This document shows, piece by piece, positions 11,510-50,500 of a stretch of DNA of 64,000 nucleotides (position 1 is the first letter of the stretch; each line of letters begins with the position of its first letter). The translations under genes and the position numbers were made by a program. Source of the DNA: a virus; the IMG/VR virus record IMGVR_UViG_3300008339_000021, positions 26,206 through 90,205 of that record; one strand, written 5' to 3'. The notes beneath the pieces are model-generated. The model was not told the origin of the DNA and did no database searches. It saw only the letters and a list, made by a program, of their open reading frames with translations.

Positions 11510-11570
11510 AGTATTTTTTATATTATAAAACTATCAAAATTTTTTAAGTTTATTAAATCTATAAAGTTTA

Positions 11571-34523: not shown

Positions 34524-35185
34524 TATCTTAGTATATTTTGACTGTCATCTGTTGGATCTACAGGGATCTGAGCAATCAGGGTTAATTCTTTTAATGCAAA
34601 CTGTTCAACTTCAGAAAATAAATATTCAGGAATATTAAGTGGCTGATCTTGTATTAACTGACATGCATCAGAGTCACATGTTGGAACATCATTTTCAAAT
34701 ATGGCTTCTATTCTCATAGCATCCCAATCAACATTAGGAACATATATATAACCATTAAGATACCAAAAGTAAGGTCTCTTATTATATTTAAAAGTTGTAG
34801 ATTTAGTTATAGAAACCCAAGTACCAGGATCTGTTCTAAACATTTCAATGCCTCCGTCTATTGATGAAGCTGTTCTAATTAGTGGTCCAAACATACCATC
34901 TAAAATACTTGGTAGTTTTTCTTTTGATCTTTTAAAGTAACACCCAGAATATACACCAATACAACCTGCCTCTACTTTATCTACATCTATCAATTCAATG
35001 TAAGGTAATACTTTGAAGATTGAACTAATCTTCATTAGTCTAAACTGATTGTCTTCTCTTTTAATTAGAGTTTTTGCATACTTAGTAAGTACAAAGTATA
35101 TTTGACGGTCAGTAAGAAATGGATCTTCTTTTACAGCTTTTAGTGCATTTCTCACTCTAGATATTGCTTCTCCAATTGTTGTCAT
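34523..35185 (-). CDS. Ring/connector-like structural protein
   Basis: A 220-residue protein. It starts with a helix (MTTIGEAISRVRNALKAVKEDPFLTDRQIYFVLTK, in parts) typical of adaptor proteins that dock below the portal, then alternates short strands with YFKRSKEKLPSI and PYFWYLNGYIYVPN. The acidic, Cys-containing C-terminus (DVPTCDSDACQLI) is followed by a final helix, PEYLFSEVEQFALKELTLIAQ. It overlaps the upstream 193-residue gene by four bases (ATGA) and the downstream ring gene by one. The place between a fibre gene block and the muzzle-like gene supports a ring/adaptor role in the short tail. No direct motif proves it. Confidence 0.6.
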   Translation of the reverse strand: MTTIGEAISRVRNALKAVKEDPFLTDRQIYFVLTKYAKTLIKREDNQFRLMKISSIFKVLPYIELIDVDKVEAGCIGVYSGCYFKRSKEKLPSILDGMFGPLIRTASSIDGGIEMFRTDPGTWVSITKSTTFKYNKRPYFWYLNGYIYVPNVDWDAMRIEAIFENDVPTCDSDACQLIQDQPLNIPEYLFSEVEQFALKELTLIAQIPVDPTDDSQNILR

Positions 35186-35763
35186 AAGTCAAACTCATTA
35201 TAGCTTTTTAAAGCTTTATTTTCTTTCATAAGGACAATATTTTTAACTACTGTCTTCTGATATATTTTTCTAAGTTTAGTAGTTGCATCAACTACAACAT
35301 ACATATTCCAGTTTTCTGGATAATTTTTAGAAACAGCTCTTTTAAAATCTCTACATGCAACAAAACTCCAATACTCTCTATTCTTCATTTTATGCTTTGG
35401 TGCATGACTTGTAAAAAAGATTTTAGCTAATTTACCATCTGTGTCAAAGTTTCTATTTGTAACTGTTACACCATACTTGTTTGATTTAGCATAGTCTACA
35501 TTTGCCTTTTTACTTTTCTGGCAAGTACCTATAAATAACCAACCAATTGTTTCTGGTAATTGTACACCATCTCTTTTTTCAATTACAGTATTATAAACTA
35601 ACTTGTTAAATGATTTGATTATCTTTCTTAACTTGTCATTTGTATAGTCTTTATACTTACTGTGCTTTTTTCTAAAATCATCAAAGAACTTCTTATCTAA
35701 TATGTTGTGCACTTCTGGTCTAAACCGTGGTGCTTTTAAATCTGGTTTTTTAAATTCCTTCAT
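35182..35763 (-). CDS. Conserved small basic protein of the tail-connector block
   Basis: A 193-residue protein with about one in five residues Lys or Arg. After a basic N-terminus (MKEFKKPDLKAPRFRPEVHN), a helical segment DKLRKIIKSFNKLVYNTVIEKRDGVQLPETIGWLFIG leads into strand-rich basic sequence (GVTVTNRNFDTDGKLAKIFFTSHAPKHK, quoted in parts). The helices-then-beta-arm arrangement is loosely like IHF/HU-type proteins but lacks their GxGxF signature, so I do not assign it there. It begins a transcription unit after a terminator at 35815-35832 and precedes the ring proteins with an ATGA overlap. Nucleic-acid binding is plausible from charge; structural role in the tail is the alternative. Confidence 0.6.
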   Translation of the reverse strand: MKEFKKPDLKAPRFRPEVHNILDKKFFDDFRKKHSKYKDYTNDKLRKIIKSFNKLVYNTVIEKRDGVQLPETIGWLFIGTCQKSKKANVDYAKSNKYGVTVTNRNFDTDGKLAKIFFTSHAPKHKMKNREYWSFVACRDFKRAVSKNYPENWNMYVVVDATTKLRKIYQKTVVKNIVLMKENKALKSYNEFDL

Positions 35764-42555: not shown

Positions 42556-43899
42556 TTAATCTATAACTGCTTCATCACCTGGAAGTGGAACCACTTGACT
42601 TGCGCAAGGAATTCCTTTACCAATATCTTGAATATTACACTCAGAACAGTTTTCTAACCATGCAAGAAGTCTTTTCCAAACAGAATTTAATGCTACATTA
42701 TCACCTTGTGGAACAACAAGTTCAACAACATATTGGTCATTATCAAATGTTCCAGTTGGGTTGTACAATCTTGGTACATTGTGTTGTAAATAGATTCTGT
42801 CATAAAGACCAGTTCTAGATATACCAGCTGCATTAAGAATGTCATACCCTTGAGTAATCTCTCTAATTCTGAAGTCAGTAGCAAAATGGTTTTGTCTGTA
42901 AGATTCAGAAAGAATTACATCTCTTACTACAGTTTCACCAATACCATTTACTTGTCTTCCGTAACATTCTACACCAACACAAAGTGCTTCAAATTCACAT
43001 GGAGATCCTGTGTAGTCTACTTCAGAAGCATAAACTCTTACTGGCTCTATTTCATAGAAGTCAGTTACTTGGAAAGTACAGTTTTCAAACTTAGTTTCAT
43101 AGTATGCACCTGTTAATACAATACCTGCACACATAGTATTTACATATGCTGCTTCAGTCCAATCACTATAATGCTTATATGTTACTCCTACAATTACAGG
43201 TAATGCAGTAAGATCTACATCATTTGGATAGTAATAAGTCCATGCTGCACCTGCATTGTTTGTAAATGTTACAACTGGGTATATAAATGGATTGATCAAC
43301 GGTGAATTCAATATTTGTTGTGCCCAAGCAATATATACTTTTCTAGGATCTACTGGTGTAGGAGCAATAGTGTCATCTGCACAACATCCTGTGTATCCTT
43401 CAAGTGTTAAGTATGCATTGTGATTTAATAATCTTAATGCAGGAGAACCTTTAACATCTAAACGTAGATAATAAGTTTCACCACACAAGAATGGTTTACA
43501 ACAATCTCCAGCAGTTTCTCCTGGGTTAGAACTTGATGGTGGATTAACATAAGTCCAAGGAGTGTATCCTACGTGAGTTACATATCTTTCAGGTTCATTA
43601 GCAGGAGAGTAATAAAGTTTGCTTACATATTTAGGTCTAATTGTTTTAGTTTTGTTAGACTCCAAATAACCTCCAGCAAATGGACCAATTTTGTCATTTT
43701 TCATTAATGAGCCTGTAGCAATAATTACATCACAACAACCTGATGGTTGTGGTGCTACTGTAAATGTTTTAGGATCAATAAATGTAATTTCTCCTGGTTT
43801 CAACATATTTGTTGTCGATGTTCCCAATTGTACCCCACTTAGGCCTGACACTTTTTGTGCCACCATAGTTTTTTTAAAGGCATGATTAAAATAAGACAT
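42556..43899 (-). CDS. Probable abundant virion protein (head/auxiliary candidate)
   Basis: A 447-residue protein starting MSYFNHAFKKTMVAQKVSGL. The body is strand-rich with many aromatic and Gly/Pro turns, for example GCCDVIIATGSLMKND, RYVTHVGYTPWTYVNPP and GETYYLRLDVKGSPALRLLNH. The C-terminal third contains RDVILSESYRQNHFATDFRIREI and RLLAWLENCSECN. It forms its own transcription unit, with a promoter-like motif upstream (43924-43931) and a terminator downstream, the same isolation that MCP has. This suggests high expression and hence a major virion component. No family is recognised. A capsid auxiliary or tail protein is inferred. Confidence 0.65.
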   Translation of the reverse strand: MSYFNHAFKKTMVAQKVSGLSGVQLGTSTTNMLKPGEITFIDPKTFTVAPQPSGCCDVIIATGSLMKNDKIGPFAGGYLESNKTKTIRPKYVSKLYYSPANEPERYVTHVGYTPWTYVNPPSSSNPGETAGDCCKPFLCGETYYLRLDVKGSPALRLLNHNAYLTLEGYTGCCADDTIAPTPVDPRKVYIAWAQQILNSPLINPFIYPVVTFTNNAGAAWTYYYPNDVDLTALPVIVGVTYKHYSDWTEAAYVNTMCAGIVLTGAYYETKFENCTFQVTDFYEIEPVRVYASEVDYTGSPCEFEALCVGVECYGRQVNGIGETVVRDVILSESYRQNHFATDFRIREITQGYDILNAAGISRTGLYDRIYLQHNVPRLYNPTGTFDNDQYVVELVVPQGDNVALNSVWKRLLAWLENCSECNIQDIGKGIPCASQVVPLPGDEAVID

Positions 43900-43923
43900 T
43901 GTTTTTGTTTTTAGTTAATAAAT

Positions 43924-43931
43924 AAATATAC
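43924..43931 (-). promoter_or_regulatory. GTATATTT promoter-like motif with adjacent dyad
   Basis: GTATATTT on the minus strand, 24 bases upstream of the ATG at 43899. Just upstream lies a short dyad, ACTATA-TATAGT (43930-43942), which could be an operator or chance AT symmetry. Confidence 0.4.
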
Positions 43932-43964
43932 TATAATATAGTAAAAAGTTTTTTAATCTCCAAA

Positions 43965-44483
43965 TTATTTCAAGAAAAGTAATTTATACTTAGTAGAGTT
44001 AATAGAATCTTTAACCAAGTCTAGATTATTTACAATTTCAGAATAGGGTAATTGTCCTTGAAGTTTATTTATCATTGCATAAAGATCTCTAAGATAACCT
44101 ACACCATCAGCAACTGTATCCAATGTTCTAGGAGCTACATCTTTTAATGTAAGTATCTTTTCTGCAGTACCTTGATATCCTTCAACTAATGTATCAGCAT
44201 GTCCAGGTAATCCATCATAAAAATCTCCTATTGCAACATGTGCTGCATAGGAGCCTTCACCGGTTACTTTAAGATGAAGTTTATGAAAACTGTTTCTAGC
44301 ATTCATAAGTTCTACTGCACAAGATGCAACCATATTATCTAATGAGCTACCTCCTACACCTGCATCTGGTGTTGGTTGTGGTTTAGCAGGTTCTGATTTT
44401 GGTTGGTTAACAATAGGTTCTGGTCTACTTACAGTTCTTGTAGGTTCAACATTTCTTTTTAGAAGTCTTGATTTAGTTTCCAT
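43965..44483 (-). CDS. Dps/ferritin-like protein
   Basis: A 172-residue protein. A Pro-rich, probably disordered N-terminus (1-45) precedes a helical domain. The segment FHKLHLKVTGEGSYAAH ... GHADTLVEG matches the Dps ferroxidase region in spacing: H70, H82 (+12), D97 (+27) and E101 (+31), the same offsets as E. coli Dps H51, H63, D78 and E82. His at +25 and Gly at +5 also match. The Dps residue D67 is replaced by Gly, with an Asp next to it (D87). Dps proteins oxidise iron, detoxify peroxide and bind DNA. The phage form is shorter at the C-terminus and carries its own N-terminal tail. Its place between a connector and a major virion gene suggests it is a virion component or is made late. Confidence 0.75.
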   Translation of the reverse strand: METKSRLLKRNVEPTRTVSRPEPIVNQPKSEPAKPQPTPDAGVGGSSLDNMVASCAVELMNARNSFHKLHLKVTGEGSYAAHVAIGDFYDGLPGHADTLVEGYQGTAEKILTLKDVAPRTLDTVADGVGYLRDLYAMINKLQGQLPYSEIVNNLDLVKDSINSTKYKLLFLK

Positions 44484-44485
44484 AT

Positions 44486-45184
44486 TTAGTTGTTTCTTTC
44501 TGCAGTTTCTGTACCTCTAGAGAATTGATTTCCTGATTCAATATCTCCAGCAAGTATACTAGCTGCTTCATCAATTATTAATTCTATTATATCATCCTTA
44601 AATTCACATTGTACTTCAGCTGTAGATGCTAAATTAGTATATGGATCTACACAACCATTAATTTGTATTTTAATTGGCTGTCTATAGTAAATAAGGTCTG
44701 CCTCATCTATATCAAATTCATTATTTGTATAAATGTTTACACTACCTCCTTTTAATGTTGCAAAAGTTTCCCCCCACTCAAAACTTGGTTGTTTTGATTT
44801 ATCTCTAAGTAGTTCTCTTAAGTTAGCTTCTTCTGCTAAATAAACCATCATAGATCTTTTATCACAGCAGTCCTTTCTAGTAAGGGCATCTACTCTTTTC
44901 CATTGAAGATAATCTTCTGGTAAAGTACCTCTGTAATAATACTGTTTATCTGCAATGGCTAAGGGAAAAGTTTCAAGAAGTATTTGTAAATCATCTTTTC
45001 TTCTTGTTGAACCTTCATCACCTTCTTTAGTAAGATTTATACCATGAAGCTGTCTACGAGCCCATTCAACCTGAGCTTTATTAAAAGATTCAACAATTTG
45101 CCAGCAAGTTATATTATCATAATCTTGACTGTCAAGCTTATTGAGTCTTTGTTTAATCTTTATGGTAAGTGTACTATTAAGCAT
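44486..45184 (-). CDS. Head-tail connector/ring-like protein
   Basis: A 232-residue protein. The helical N-terminus (LTIKIKQRLNKLDSQDYDNITCWQIVESFNKAQVEWARRQL, in parts) leads to LPEDYLQWKRVDALTRKDCC, then a strand region with GGSVNIYTNNEFDIDEADLIYYRQP, and a last helix IIELIIDEAASILAGDIES. This helix-beta-helix order is that of gp4-like or gp6-like adaptor proteins that bind below the portal. It lies two bases before the Dps-like gene and one after the small basic gene cluster. It probably forms the first ring below the portal. This is inferred from pattern and position. Confidence 0.65.
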   Translation of the reverse strand: MLNSTLTIKIKQRLNKLDSQDYDNITCWQIVESFNKAQVEWARRQLHGINLTKEGDEGSTRRKDDLQILLETFPLAIADKQYYYRGTLPEDYLQWKRVDALTRKDCCDKRSMMVYLAEEANLRELLRDKSKQPSFEWGETFATLKGGSVNIYTNNEFDIDEADLIYYRQPIKIQINGCVDPYTNLASTAEVQCEFKDDIIELIIDEAASILAGDIESGNQFSRGTETAERNN

Positions 45185-45187
45185 AGC

Positions 45188-45634
45188 TTATTTTCTTTTC
45201 TTATTTTTTACAGCACCTCCTCTTCTTTGTTTATAAGGACTTGAAGTTGGAACACTCATATTCAATGTATTAGCTCTTTGTCTTGGTGCTGGTGTTGATT
45301 GCATTGACTGTGTACCAATCACACCTTCTGGCTTACTCATAGACATTATTTTTTGCATAGCAGTAGAAGGATTAACACTACTATAAACAGATGGAGTTCC
45401 TGCTGGTGGTGTAAGATTAGGTTTTGCTGGTGGAGATGCTGGATACTGATTTAACATGTTTTCAAATGCAGCATCATCCGCAGCCATTCTTCCCATACCA
45501 GATCCTCCTCCACCTTGGAGTTTCTTTAAATACTTATTATAAGCTTTCATTTGTCCACCAGCTTTCATATGAGCCATAGCTACATTATCATTAAATGTTT
45601 TAAGTGGATTATTAGGTTTAAGTGGTTTTTTCAT
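45188..45634 (-). CDS. Small basic virion-region protein with RRGG C-terminus
   Basis: A 148-residue protein. The N-terminal half is helical and basic (HMKAGGQMKAYNKYLKKLQGGGG). The middle is Pro/Ser/Thr-rich and probably disordered (PASPPAKPNLTPPAGTP). The C-terminus is KQRRGGAVKNKKRK, one of several K/R-GG-[SA]-V-x-K endings in this cluster. It overlaps nothing but sits two bases from the 48-residue gene upstream. The charge suggests DNA or RNA binding inside the capsid; a linker role to the connector is an alternative. Confidence 0.6.
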   Translation of the reverse strand: MKKPLKPNNPLKTFNDNVAMAHMKAGGQMKAYNKYLKKLQGGGGSGMGRMAADDAAFENMLNQYPASPPAKPNLTPPAGTPSVYSSVNPSTAMQKIMSMSKPEGVIGTQSMQSTPAPRQRANTLNMSVPTSSPYKQRRGGAVKNKKRK

Positions 45635-45636
45635 AG

Positions 45637-45783
45637 TTATCTATTTTTAGCCATTTTTTTTAATGTTCTAGCTAGAGCTTTTCTTTTAGGTGTACAAGTA
45701 GGTTTTGACATAGGAGTACAATAACCCTTATGTTTAGGATTGATTGCTTTTTGTATCCATTTTTTATCCTTCTTAGTAGCCAT
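45637..45783 (-). CDS. Small basic protein, 48 residues
   Basis: An open frame from the ATG at 45783 to the TAA at 45637-45639. It encodes MATKKDKKWIQKAINPKHKG, then a YCTPMSKPTCTPKRKALART middle and LKKMAKNR at the end, with about one third of residues Lys or Arg. It fills exactly the gap between the 78- and 148-residue genes and shares their composition and A-rich leader, so I consider it real. Probably a minor DNA-binding virion protein. Confidence 0.65.
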   Translation of the reverse strand: MATKKDKKWIQKAINPKHKGYCTPMSKPTCTPKRKALARTLKKMAKNR

Positions 45784-45785
45784 GA

Positions 45786-46022
45786 CTATTTTTTCTTTTT
45801 ACTAGCTCTTTTCTTAGCACCTGCAATTCTATCAGCTGCTGTTGCTTTAGGATTATTATCTATACCAGCTTTTACTGAAAGCATACCAAATTTAGTAGCA
45901 CCACCTTTCTTCATTTGCATAGGTCTAGTAGTAGCATTATAGCCAGGCATACCAACAATTTTTTGTGAACCACCTTTTTGCATTTTCTTTGTGGCACCGC
46001 CACATTGCATACATTTTTTCAT
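45786..46022 (-). CDS. Small basic Cys/GG-motif protein
   Basis: A 78-residue protein beginning MKKCMQCGGATKKMQKGGS, with a C-x2-C pair and three GG motifs (QCGGAT, QKGGSQ, KKGGAT). It ends AGAKKRASKKKK. The N-terminus is very similar in style to the 118-residue gene just upstream (MKKMGCAKCGGTMKKMAKGG), pointing to a duplication. The high positive charge suggests interaction with packaged DNA. The KGG motif could be a processing or interaction site. Confidence 0.65.
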   Translation of the reverse strand: MKKCMQCGGATKKMQKGGSQKIVGMPGYNATTRPMQMKKGGATKFGMLSVKAGIDNNPKATAADRIAGAKKRASKKKK

Positions 46023-46024
46023 GA

Positions 46025-46381
46025 CTATTTTTTTCTTTTTAATTTAACACTACCACCTCTCCTTTCTACAGGCAAAGATGTTTCTTTTTTAAGTTGTTTT
46101 CTAATGTCAGATCTTTTAACATCTTTACCTTCTTTTTCTGCTTTTCTTTTAAGTTCATTAACTGCTTTTATTCTTTGAACTCCTTTTAATGAACCTACAG
46201 CAGAAGCAATTGCTGCACCAGCACCAAATACACCAGCAGCAATTTTTTGACTAGTACATGGTACACAGTCAGGATATACTCCACATCTATTTTTAGAGTT
46301 GTTTTTACAATCTCCTGCAGCACCTCCTTTTGCCATTTTTTTCATTGTGCCACCACATTTAGCACATCCCATTTTTTTCAT
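46025..46381 (-). CDS. Small basic protein with Cys motif and Gly/Ala hydrophobic stretch
   Basis: A 118-residue protein. The N-terminus CAKCGGTMKKMAKGGAAG is shared in pattern with the next gene. Further Cys residues follow (CKNNSKNRCGVYPDCVPC), possibly a second metal site. A short Gly/Ala hydrophobic stretch, IAAGVFGAGAAIASAVGSL, comes next, then a very basic helical tail ending RRGGSVKLKRKK. The mix of a possible membrane-active stretch with a basic tail is unusual for such a short protein. Gap to the next gene is two bases. Confidence 0.65.
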   Translation of the reverse strand: MKKMGCAKCGGTMKKMAKGGAAGDCKNNSKNRCGVYPDCVPCTSQKIAAGVFGAGAAIASAVGSLKGVQRIKAVNELKRKAEKEGKDVKRSDIRKQLKKETSLPVERRGGSVKLKRKK

Positions 46382-46400
46382 ATTGATATAAATATATAAA

Positions 46401-46682
46401 TTAACAATTCCATTTCCTCAAAGATTTATTAATCCTTGAATCTGGGTCATTAGCTTTTTTCTTACCAGTTAGTTTTTTCTTCATACCTTCCATTCTGGCA
46501 CAAAAAGATTTTCTCCTTTTAGCAGACTTACTATCTGGATCAAGTTTAGAAGGTTTGGTAGTTACAGCTGTCTTAAGTTTACTTCCTGGATTCTCTCTTC
46601 TATAGGAAGCAACACCTTTAGCATTCAAACCACCTGATGGGTTTTTACCTTCTTTTCTTTGCCAAGCTGCTGACTTTGCCAT
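46401..46682 (-). CDS. Small basic protein resembling a phage DUF family (RKSFCARM motif)
   Basis: A 93-residue protein. It contains AWQRKEGKNPSGGLNAKGVASYRRENPGSKLKTAVT, quoted in parts, then KSAKRRKSFCARMEGMKKKLT and NDPDSRINKSLRKWNC. I recognise this pattern from small proteins of unknown function in cyanophages and other marine phages (I recall DUF6321, unverified). The conserved Cys, Arg and aromatic residues suggest a small folded basic unit. It lies two bases from the 81-residue gene upstream. Occurrence in distant marine viruses would support an aquatic origin of this genome. Confidence 0.7.
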   Translation of the reverse strand: MAKSAAWQRKEGKNPSGGLNAKGVASYRRENPGSKLKTAVTTKPSKLDPDSKSAKRRKSFCARMEGMKKKLTGKKKANDPDSRINKSLRKWNC

Positions 46683-46684
46683 TA

Positions 46685-46930
46685 CTATTTCATTTTACCA
46701 TTAGCAAGATTAGTAAACATCTTAGCTTGCTCTTGTGCCATCTTCTTTACATCTGTCATAAGCTTAGCATCTTTCTGAATCTCAGCTGCCCTTTTTAATG
46801 TAGACATAGCAGATTCAACTTCCCACTTTCTCATCTCAGCCTTGTTGCCTCCCATAATAGAGATACCAAGTGAAGAAGATGACTTCTTAGCAGGAGCTTT
46901 CTTAGTAGTTGTTGTTTTCTTAATTGCCAT
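46685..46930 (-). CDS. Small helical basic protein
   Basis: An 81-residue protein. The Lys/Thr-rich N-terminus (MAIKKTTTTKKAPAKKSSSS) resembles histone-like tails. It is followed by a helix, KAEMRKWEVESAMSTLKRAAEIQKDAKLMTDVKKMAQEQAKMF (in parts). Two bases separate it from the 108-residue gene. A tail-plus-helix plan would suit binding of nucleic acid and oligomerisation, but function is not known. Confidence 0.6.
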   Translation of the reverse strand: MAIKKTTTTKKAPAKKSSSSLGISIMGGNKAEMRKWEVESAMSTLKRAAEIQKDAKLMTDVKKMAQEQAKMFTNLANGKMK

Positions 46931-46932
46931 AA

Positions 46933-47259
46933 CTATTTATGTTTTTTTGATGTTCTTAATCCACTAGAAGAAGATTGTCTTCTTAAAACTGAACCTTTAA
47001 TAACTGATCCACCCCTTTTAGCAAATGAACTACTAGAATCAAAAGGATCATTTTCTTCTTTAAGAAAAGCATCTCTTGCTTTCATTCTATCTACTTTATT
47101 TTCAAGCTTATCTTTGTCTACATATTTAGTTACTTTTTTAAGCTTGTCACCATCTTTATTTCTTACAGTTTTAGTAATTGTACCTTTAAAAATATCATAA
47201 TCTTTAGTTCTATCTCTAAAGATACCTTTACTTTGTTTTCTGTAATCTGGATCTGCCAT
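46933..47259 (-). CDS. Small highly charged protein with KRGGSV motif
   Basis: A 108-residue protein rich in Lys, Asp and Arg. After an N-terminal DYRKQSKGIFRDRTKDYDIFKG, a charged helix (KDKLENKVDRMKARDAFLKE) leads to SFAKRGGSVIKGSVLRRQS and the basic end RTSKKHK. It carries one of the K/R-x-GG-S-V motifs shared by this cluster. Gap to the 112-residue gene is 17 bases. Likely a minor virion or DNA-condensing protein by context. Confidence 0.6.
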   Translation of the reverse strand: MADPDYRKQSKGIFRDRTKDYDIFKGTITKTVRNKDGDKLKKVTKYVDKDKLENKVDRMKARDAFLKEENDPFDSSSSFAKRGGSVIKGSVLRRQSSSSGLRTSKKHK

Positions 47260-47276
47260 GACTATATATTTTTAAA

Positions 47277-47615
47277 TTAAACATTTTTAACTCTTCTTCC
47301 CATACCTACTCTAGACTTCTCAGCTTTTTTAGCTTTTAGTTTAGAAGGAGATAATTCACTTTTTGTTTTAGGAGTATCCTTAGATACTCTTCTTGTAGGC
47401 CGGCAGTATTCATTTTTACCACCGGCACCACAAGCTTTTCCTGTTTTAGTATCTTGCCATTTTTCTTTTTCCCATCTTTTAAGTTCAGATCCTTCCTTAG
47501 TTTTTCTAACTTTGCCGGATTTTTTTCTGCACTTTGCTATAGCCTGAGAAGCCCTAGCAGAAGGGAATACAGCATATCTTGCTTTTACACTATGATAACA
47601 TGCATCTTTTGGCAT
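47277..47615 (-). CDS. Small basic protein resembling viral DUF family (CYHSVKARY...CRPTRRVSK)
   Basis: A 112-residue protein with KDACYHSVKARYAVFPSARAS, then CRKKSGKVRK, then RWEKEKWQDTKTGKACG and YCRPTRRVSKDTPKT. This set of motifs recalls small proteins of unknown function found in marine phages and large eukaryotic viruses (I recall DUF5872-like, unverified). Conserved Cys/His pairs may bind zinc. It has the same strong positive charge as the cluster. A role in packing or protecting DNA is a reasonable guess. Confidence 0.7.
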   Translation of the reverse strand: MPKDACYHSVKARYAVFPSARASQAIAKCRKKSGKVRKTKEGSELKRWEKEKWQDTKTGKACGAGGKNEYCRPTRRVSKDTPKTKSELSPSKLKAKKAEKSRVGMGRRVKNV

Positions 47616-48883: not shown

Positions 48884-50500
48884 TTAGAAAGAGCCACCTG
48901 TTACTGGGTTTCTCATAACAATCTTAAGGACTTTAGTTGGATCCTTAACCCAAATAGCTGGGAATGTTTGAGTCATCATTACTCGGTATCCATTGAATTG
49001 ACCAGAAGACTGGAATCCTTGTGTACGGCCCATATAGTCCATAGTACCATTTTGATACCACCACTTCAATTGATTATCCCAAGACAACTTCAATAAGAAG
49101 ATATTGTCATTAGTATTATCAGTGATGTCAAAGATAATGAATGAGTAAGAAGATAATGGGAAACCATCAATGATTGGGTTCTCAATATCATTTGTATGGA
49201 TGTTGTCAAATGCTGGGTTCAACACAAACTTAACATTAGCCAAGAATGGAATAACATAAGAAGTGTAAGCAAATCCAAAGTTCAAGTCCATACCTTTACC
49301 AGTGATTGCACCAATATCAGCAGCTTGAATTACAAGACCTGAAGCAACTGCTTCTCTCTTGATAGCTTCATTTACCATTCTCATACCTCCCATACCGGTT
49401 TGTACAATCAATGATCTGTTTGGATCTGGACCTTGGAACTCAACCTTACCATTGAAGAAGTTGTAGATTTCTCCACGGAACAAATCCAATGTAAAGTTAT
49501 TTTTGTTGTATACTCTCTTGAATGAGTTATCCAACTGCTTCCAAAGACCCACAGACATTCTTAGATCATCTGGACCATCTTGACGTACTCTACCACCATG
49601 ACCCCACATTAAGTAAGTTTCAATGTCAATAGCAATTTTAGACAAGTGAGCAGCTTCCATTTGAGTTAAGAAAGTTCTAGAAAGATCTCCATTGTCAAAT
49701 GCTTTTTTTACTTTGTCTTTACCCATAACTTTGATCATATCTTCTAATGAAGAAATAGATGGATCATTGTTAGATGTAAAGTTTCTCCAGATCTCAGTTA
49801 CAGGAACTGTACCATCTGCATTCATACCTCCTTTGATCATCAAGTCAGCTCTAGAAGATACTGAATAGTGAACATGAGCCTCAGCACCACCAACAAAGTT
49901 ATAGAACTCACGGAATGAAGTTCTTGTTGTGATGTCAGAGAATCTTTCACCATACTCTCCTCTAGCAGAACCTTTACGGAAGATTTTAGTTCCCTCAGTA
50001 AGGTATTTGTGATCTAGGAATTTATAGTTGTCATTGTTTACCAACTGTACTGTATAGATGAAAGCATCTCCTACTTGTAGAATATCTTCATCAGTAATGT
50101 ACATTTCAACTCCATTGTATTTGTCATAAGTGATGATATCACCATGTCCAAACTCACGTCTGTTGATTTTAATTTTAAAGGTTGAACCATCAGTACCTAA
50201 AACTCTGTTTGGGTCTTCAATGTCTTCAACAATATAAGGAAGATCAATAGATACAGGAGTCTGCCATCTATATTCCCCTCTATGGTTGTCAACCATAATT
50301 ACATTTTTACCACCAAAGCTAGACATTTGGTAAAGAGGCATTTCCACCTTCTGAGCCATTGCCCAAAGGTCTACTGGACCTAAGTCCATTGGTTCTGCAT
50401 CCTTCAACATGTTAACCAAGTGGTAAGAATCTACGTGTGAACTTGCTTGGTAAGCTGTATCCCGTAGAAAGATACCATTGTTTAAAACTGGAGTTGCCAT
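48884..50500 (-). CDS. Major capsid protein (crAss-like, HK97 fold)
   Basis: A 538-residue protein in the position of the capsid gene, after terminase, portal and scaffold. Composition is balanced, without the low complexity of the neighbours. Segments such as RSLIVQTGMGGMRMVNEAI, DLNFGFAYTSYVIPFLANVKFVLNPAFD (in parts), NDIENPIIDGFPLSSYSFIIFD and WYQNGTMDYMGRTQGF look like crAss-like major capsid proteins as I know them. The usual length of 490-540 residues fits. It assembles the icosahedral shell. The start has an A-rich leader without a Shine-Dalgarno sequence. A strong terminator follows. There is no sign of a cleaved N-terminal scaffold domain; scaffold is a separate gene. Confidence 0.85.
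   Translation of the reverse strand: MATPVLNNGIFLRDTAYQASSHVDSYHLVNMLKDAEPMDLGPVDLWAMAQKVEMPLYQMSSFGGKNVIMVDNHRGEYRWQTPVSIDLPYIVEDIEDPNRVLGTDGSTFKIKINRREFGHGDIITYDKYNGVEMYITDEDILQVGDAFIYTVQLVNNDNYKFLDHKYLTEGTKIFRKGSARGEYGERFSDITTRTSFREFYNFVGGAEAHVHYSVSSRADLMIKGGMNADGTVPVTEIWRNFTSNNDPSISSLEDMIKVMGKDKVKKAFDNGDLSRTFLTQMEAAHLSKIAIDIETYLMWGHGGRVRQDGPDDLRMSVGLWKQLDNSFKRVYNKNNFTLDLFRGEIYNFFNGKVEFQGPDPNRSLIVQTGMGGMRMVNEAIKREAVASGLVIQAADIGAITGKGMDLNFGFAYTSYVIPFLANVKFVLNPAFDNIHTNDIENPIIDGFPLSSYSFIIFDITDNTNDNIFLLKLSWDNQLKWWYQNGTMDYMGRTQGFQSSGQFNGYRVMMTQTFPAIWVKDPTKVLKIVMRNPVTGGSF

What the first reader, a model, noticed from the sequence alone, without database searches (positions are those of the whole stretch)
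43965..44483. Phage Dps-like protein with near-intact ferroxidase spacing
Seen: H70, H82, D97 and E101 have exactly the offsets (0, +12, +27, +31) of E. coli Dps H51/H63/D78/E82, plus matching G at +5 and H at +25. D67 is replaced by Gly with Asp at the next position. Known: Dps binds DNA and oxidises iron to prevent Fenton damage. Inference: the phage makes or packages an oxidative protection or DNA-organising protein. The gene sits inside the virion gene block.
Basis: partly seen in the sequence, partly recalled or inferred. Interest (0 to 1): 0.65.

Follow-up and report, generated by a model that had tools for sequence, protein, structure and literature searches.

The report
Dps-like iron protein of crAss-like phage
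A freshwater relative of the crAss gut phages carries, in its virion gene block, a small protein built like the bacterial iron-oxidising, DNA-protecting protein Dps; it keeps four of the five iron-site residues unchanged in every relative examined, so it is probably a phage-made iron and oxidation shield, although nobody has tested it.

Summary
The 172-aa protein at 43965-44483 (minus strand) has H70, H82, D97 and E101 at exactly the spacing of E. coli Dps H51/H63/D78/E82, with Gly at the D67 site. It belongs to Pfam DUF5856 / PHROG 858. A profile of the family, containing no bacterial Dps, finds Dps proteins in the PDB (E about 1e-6). Two AlphaFold models show a four-helix bundle plus the short BC helix, and the 50 PDB matches listed for each are nearly all Dps-type chains. 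H67, H70, H82, Y89, D97 and E101 are invariant in all 128 distinct relatives; the D67 position is acidic in only 2 of 128, and D87 does not compensate. So this is a Dps-type miniferritin variant lacking one site-B ligand, a loss also seen in an active cyanobacterial Dps. In this crAss-like lineage the gene is fixed behind a virion structural gene (79 of 80 loci), near a cluster of small, very basic proteins. crAss001 (gp7, 'putative DpsA') and cr108_1 carry relatives with the full canonical site, so phage Dps proteins are not new. Packaging in the virion and DNA binding are possible but unproven; ferroxidase activity is likely but untested.

The parts
43965..44483 (-). Dps-like (DUF5856 / PHROG 858) gene, 172 aa
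   Evidence: ORF; Pfam DUF5856 8.8e-12; PHROG 858 6e-17; AF2 plus Foldseek to Dps
44349..44483 (-). N-terminal tail, residues 1-45, predicted disordered, Lys/Arg/Pro-rich (conserved [LM]LKR...RP...QPK motif), net charge about +3
   Evidence: low pLDDT; conserved in 59 close homologues; charge; dN/dS 0.26 against 0.13 for the core
44274..44276 (-). H70 codon, counterpart of Dps H51 (site A ligand)
   Evidence: invariant 128/128; register
44238..44240 (-). H82 codon, counterpart of Dps H63 (site B)
   Evidence: invariant 128/128
44226..44228 (-). G86 codon at the Dps D67 position (acid lost)
   Evidence: G 77, N 20, A 17, Q 9, R 3, D 2 of 128
44193..44195 (-). D97 codon, counterpart of Dps D78 (site A, from the partner subunit)
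   Evidence: invariant 128/128
44181..44183 (-). E101 codon, counterpart of Dps E82 (bridging ligand, from the partner subunit)
   Evidence: invariant 128/128
44486..45184 (-). Upstream neighbour: virion structural protein related to a Cellulophaga phi4:1 protein found by MS/MS; probably a tail-ring (R3/R4-type) gene
   Evidence: PHROG 29507 'virion structural protein' 3.9e-14; phi4:1 gp062 match 3e-8; directly upstream in 79/80 loci, median gap 3 nt; 'ring' is inferred from gene order
43900..43964 (-). 61-71 nt gap with conserved TATATTATA, candidate late promoter of the next gene
   Evidence: gap length in 79 loci; motif in an alignment of 54 distinct loci
42556..43899 (-). Downstream neighbour, 447 aa, unassigned protein, same strand in 79/79 loci where found
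   Evidence: no family match
45188..47615 (-). Cluster of eight small basic proteins (48-148 aa, net +11 to +24) incl. DUF5872 and DUF6321, upstream of the ring-type and Dps-like genes

Best explanation
The gene encodes a phage miniferritin of the Dps type, made late in infection with the virion proteins. The subunit is a four-helix bundle with a short BC helix (predicted). Subunits probably pair as in Dps, so that H70 and H82 of one subunit and D97 and E101 of the other form a metal site: site A (H70, D97, E101) is complete, and site B keeps H82 and the bridging E101 but lacks the acid at 67, which binds through water in canonical Dps. The protein probably oxidises and sequesters Fe2+ and so lowers Fenton damage to phage DNA during replication and assembly. 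Shown here: gene, family, register, conservation, synteny. Predicted: fold. Inferred: pairing and cage formation, iron oxidation, late expression, protective role. Not shown: DNA binding, presence in the virion.
For: Family profile without any bacterial Dps finds HP-NAP, MrgA, Bacillus and other Dps proteins at 1e-6 to 1e-3 with H/H/D/E in register. The first AF2 model gives helices 47-72, 78-102, 106-112 (BC), 124-144, 149-169 and the second nearly the same; the 50 listed PDB matches of each are nearly all Dps-type chains, Foldseek probability 0.98-1.00. H67, H70, H82, Y89, D97, E101, D155 invariant in 128 distinct relatives, 29 of them below 80% identity to each other. H82 and D97 are 15 residues (about 22 A, helix geometry) apart on one helix, too far for one site within a subunit, so their joint conservation favours an intersubunit site as in Dps. 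NpDps4 has Asn at 67 that is not a ligand and still oxidises Fe2+ with O2 (PMC6675082). Same-strand, 3-nt spacing to a virion structural gene in nearly all loci.
Against: No Pfam Ferritin (PF00210) match in the family members and no NCBIfam Dps match for P0001. Foldseek E-values are weak (best 5e-3 to 1e-2) and TM-scores about 0.4-0.6. The acid at 67 is missing in nearly all members. Oligomer state was not modelled. NpDps4 is an imperfect precedent: it has His at 78 and a third-monomer His that this family is not known to have.
Confidence: 0.6

Rival explanations
1. It is a virion component: the Dps-like protein is packaged in capsid or tail beside the basic proteins and the RNA polymerase cargo, and protects or organises the packaged genome.
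For: Fixed position next to a virion structural gene in 79/80 loci; an unrelated short-tailed lineage has its family member between connector and major head protein; cr108_1 gp063 also lies in the virion block near HU/IHF-like; BFVD shows Dps-like matches to proteins named prohead protease; highly basic gene cluster nearby.
Against: No proteomics for this lineage; crAss001 gp7 lies among tRNA genes and is not named among virion proteins in the passages read of PMC6235969 and PMC10172136; the T4-like relatives sit beside rI, away from head genes; a 12-mer of about 9 nm (general knowledge) could not leave through tail constrictions below 5 nm (PMC10172136), so it could not be delivered assembled.
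Confidence: 0.3
2. A DNA-binding or nucleoid-organising Dps homologue whose main job is compaction through its basic tail, the metal site serving mainly structure.
For: Conserved N-terminal K/R/P tail, net about +3, in front of a slightly acidic core (net -3), a layout like that of E. coli Dps; nearby cluster of very basic proteins.
Against: Tail charge is modest and its sequence is under weaker constraint than the core; tails differ completely between lineages while the metal residues never change.
Confidence: 0.2
3. A four-helix-bundle protein that kept Dps-like His/Asp/Glu for binding another metal (for example Zn or Mn) or for a different diiron reaction, without storage or protection.
For: Site B acid missing in nearly the whole family; extra invariant residues Y89 and D155.
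Against: Site A ligands plus H63 counterpart invariant; an active Dps without the D67 acid is known; relatives in crAss001 and cr108_1 keep all five residues.
Confidence: 0.15

Closest known systems
PHROG 858 / Pfam DUF5856 (includes Aeromonas Tulanevirus MobD.6 / rI.-1 proteins)
   Same: Statistically a member (6e-17; 8.8e-12); all invariant residues shared
   Different: Adds a 45-aa conserved N-terminal tail and sits in the virion block of a crAss-like phage; T4-like members sit beside rI
Bacterial Dps / miniferritin (E. coli Dps, HP-NAP, MrgA)
   Same: Four helices plus BC helix (predicted); H51, H63, D78, E82 counterparts at the same spacing; His three before H51 as in HP-NAP
   Different: D67 acid replaced by Gly/Asn; about 8-20% identity in the structural matches; oligomer and activity untested
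crAss001 gp7 'putative DpsA' (NC_049977) and cr108_1 gp063 'DNA-binding protein' (NC_055878)
   Same: Dps-like proteins of crAss-like phages that match the same profile (2e-5 and 1e-11 in a four-sequence search); cr108_1 gene also in the virion block
   Different: They keep all five canonical residues with a shorter A-B loop; gp7 lies in the tRNA cluster
Nostoc punctiforme Dps4 (His-type ferroxidase centre, PMC6675082)
   Same: No acid at position 67 (Asn there), yet ferroxidase-active
   Different: NpDps4 has His78 and His164 as ligands; the phage family keeps Asp at 78
DPS enzymes of Gratiaviridae and other gut phages (PMC8008677)
   Same: Phage-encoded Dps, proposed to protect against oxidative damage
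   Different: Different phages; membership of the same subfamily not tested

Membership tests
Dps / miniferritin | Detectable sequence homology to Dps | tested here: met
   hmmsearch of family profiles against PDB sequences: 1.1e-6, 3.1e-6
Dps / miniferritin | Four-helix bundle with BC helix in the B-C connection | tested here: met
   AF2 models only; the 50 listed PDB matches of each are nearly all Dps-type chains
Dps / miniferritin | Five canonical ferroxidase residues H51, H63, D67, D78, E82 | tested here: not met
   Four of five present and invariant; the D67 position is G/N/A/Q/R in 126 of 128. Hence filed as a Dps-like variant, not a canonical Dps
Dps / miniferritin | Match to the curated Pfam Ferritin or NCBIfam Dps model | tested here: not met
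   DUF5856 is the only family shared by the members in Pfam; no Dps model hit in NCBIfam for P0001
Dps / miniferritin | Intersubunit ferroxidase site and dodecameric cage | not testable with these tools
   No multimer modelling; only the spacing argument
Dps / miniferritin | Fe2+ oxidation and DNA protection | not testable with these tools
   Needs purified protein
DUF5856 / PHROG 858 | Score above the curated cut-off | tested here: met
   46.4 bits against a cut-off of 34.6; PHROG 6e-17
His-type ferroxidase Dps (NpDps4 class) | His in place of Asp at position 78 | tested here: not met
   D97 invariant in 128/128
crAss-like phage virion block (genomic setting) | crAss-type major capsid, portal and ring proteins around the gene | tested here: met
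   Crass_capsid 4.7e-30, portal PHROG 6547 8.7e-96, CrAss_Ring_2 1.4e-21 and CrAss_Ring_1 1.9e-9

The most novel reading that the evidence does not exclude
A miniferritin that is a fixed structural or cargo part of the virion in a lineage of crAss-like phages, packaged with a set of highly basic proteins to protect or condense the encapsidated genome, with a reduced ferroxidase centre that has lost the D67 acid.
Probability: 0.25. Interest if true: 0.7.

Novelty: new variant of a known kind. Interest (0 to 1): 0.4.

Why it matters
It turns a family filed as 'unknown function' in Pfam into a testable prediction: DUF5856 proteins of tailed phages are Dps-type miniferritins with a four-residue metal site. 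In one crAss-like lineage the gene is a stable part of the virion gene block, which raises the directly testable question whether some phages carry their own iron and oxidation protection in the particle. If only intracellular, it still adds an environmental crAss-like lineage to the phages known to encode oxidative-stress proteins.

Tried and rejected
D87 as a substitute for D67: rejected, because it varies (D, K, E, T, A, G). A host-chromosome origin: the genome-contig scan gave one candidate, a sulfatase-like protein matching mainly in the tail, rejected. Near DNA matches in named phages: none. Relatives in Leptolyngbya phage Lbo-JY46, Cellulophaga phi4:1 and cr272_1: none found with PHROG 858. 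Further close relatives of cr108_1 gp063 in viral contigs: none. RLLKR-type tail motif as a packaging signal shared with other window proteins: no shared motif found. Sigma-70 promoters and intrinsic terminators around the gene: no excess over shuffles. Phage 7-7-1 paper: 'DPs' there means decoration proteins, irrelevant.

Full report
What is there. The ORF at 43965-44483 on the minus strand encodes 172 aa. The window is part of a 90,205-base virus record from a crAss-like phage: the major capsid protein matches Pfam Crass_capsid, the portal PHROG 6547, and genes further along match CrAss_Ring_1 and CrAss_Ring_2. No named phage is close in DNA; the best capsid match is Leptolyngbya phage Lbo-JY46 at 28% identity.

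A shuffle test gives the four-residue pattern in about 2 per 10,000 shuffles, which alone would not be decisive after a search through many proteins and motifs.

Homology. P0001 is above the cut-off for DUF5856 and matches PHROG 858, 'starvation-inducible transcriptional regulator', a name that presumably refers to Dps. Phages with relatives include Aeromonas Tulaneviruses (MobD.6 / rI.-1), two uncultured phages of 0.63-0.64 Mb and several short-tailed spring-water phages. A profile of 13 such proteins, none of them bacterial Dps, finds Dps proteins in the PDB at up to 1.1e-6, aligned with His on His, Asp on Asp and Glu on Glu; a 37-sequence profile gives the same.

Fold. Two AlphaFold2 models, from a shallow and from a broader alignment, give a four-helix bundle with a short helix between B and C, and a largely disordered first 45 residues. 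The 50 PDB matches listed for each model are nearly all Dps-type proteins (some mutant or engineered, one unnamed Pyrococcus protein) at Foldseek probability 0.98-1.00, but with E-values of only 5e-3 to 8e-2 and TM-scores about 0.4-0.6. This supports the fold but not its details; no multimer was modelled.

Conservation. Over 128 distinct proteins (29 below 80% mutual identity), H67, H70, S78, H82, Y89, D97, E101, G105, D155 and L168 never change; the D67-equivalent is G, N, A, Q or R in 126 and D in 2. The Asp after it varies. H82 and D97 lie on one helix about four turns apart, so a single-subunit site cannot use both; their joint invariance is what a Dps-type intersubunit site would require (inference). 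The loss of the acid at 67 does not by itself abolish activity: NpDps4 has a non-ligand Asn there and oxidises Fe2+ with O2 (PMC6675082), although it has other His ligands.

Setting. In 79 of 80 crAss-like loci the gene follows, at a median of 3 nt, a gene for a virion structural protein (PHROG 29507; the Cellulophaga phi4:1 homologue gp062 was seen by MS/MS), and in all 79 loci where it is found the 42556-43899 gene follows after 61-71 nt. That gap carries a conserved TATATTATA, a possible late promoter. Upstream lies a run of small, very basic proteins; at least two such ORFs occur in all 80 loci, median six, against a mean of 0.25 downstream. In an unrelated short-tailed lineage the family member sits between connector and major head protein. 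In crAss001 the Dps-like gp7 sits among tRNA genes; in cr108_1 gp063 sits in the virion block. Both keep all five canonical residues.

Mechanism. I think it most likely that the protein is a miniferritin made with the late proteins, oxidising Fe2+ at the dimer interface and limiting Fenton damage to phage DNA. If cages of about 9 nm form (general knowledge of Dps), they could not pass the crAss tail constrictions (below 5 nm, PMC10172136), so delivery of assembled cages into the next host is unlikely; retention in the capsid remains possible. DNA binding through the tail is plausible but weak: net charge about +3, looser constraint (dN/dS 0.26 against 0.13 for the core).

Novelty. Phage Dps proteins are known (PMC8008677; crAss001 gp7), and the family exists in Pfam and PHROGs. 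What is added here: the assignment of DUF5856 to the Dps fold with an invariant four-residue site lacking the D67 acid, and its fixed place in the virion block of a crAss-like lineage. I call it a new variant of a known kind.

Noticed in passing
window 45188-47615, minus strand: Eight consecutive small ORFs (48-148 aa) with net charge +11 to +24, two matching DUF5872 and DUF6321; at least two such ORFs upstream of the ring-type gene in all 80 related loci (median six). They resemble protamine- or histone-like proteins and deserve a study of their own.
   Followed up: partly
window 43900-43964 and other intergenic gaps (near 11519, 38936, 51816, 61528): TATATTA-type motif in intergenic gaps; TATATTATA is conserved in 54 distinct homologous gaps after the Dps-like gene. 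Candidate late promoter; in the window the exact motif is only mildly enriched (7 against 3.6 expected).
   Followed up: partly
L180-L190 and L085, L086 N-termini: Family members of one group, including one from a 0.63 Mb phage, begin M[KR][KR]F[ST]xF or similar, followed by a basic stretch and acidic residues, reminiscent (from memory) of T4 capsid-targeting peptides; possible packaging signal.
   Followed up: no
BFVD matches A0A6J7WIS1, A0A6J7WPK9, A0A6J7XDU5: Uncultured phage proteins named 'Prohead protease' contain stretches that match the Dps-like model, suggesting head-associated Dps domains elsewhere.
   Followed up: no
window 48884-50500: The major capsid protein's best named match is Leptolyngbya phage Lbo-JY46 (a cyanobacterial phage), over 99% of its length at 28% identity; the crAss-like group may reach cyanobacterial hosts.
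   Followed up: no
window 35182-35763, minus strand: 193-aa protein with net charge +23 just upstream of ring protein 2; no family match.
   Followed up: no
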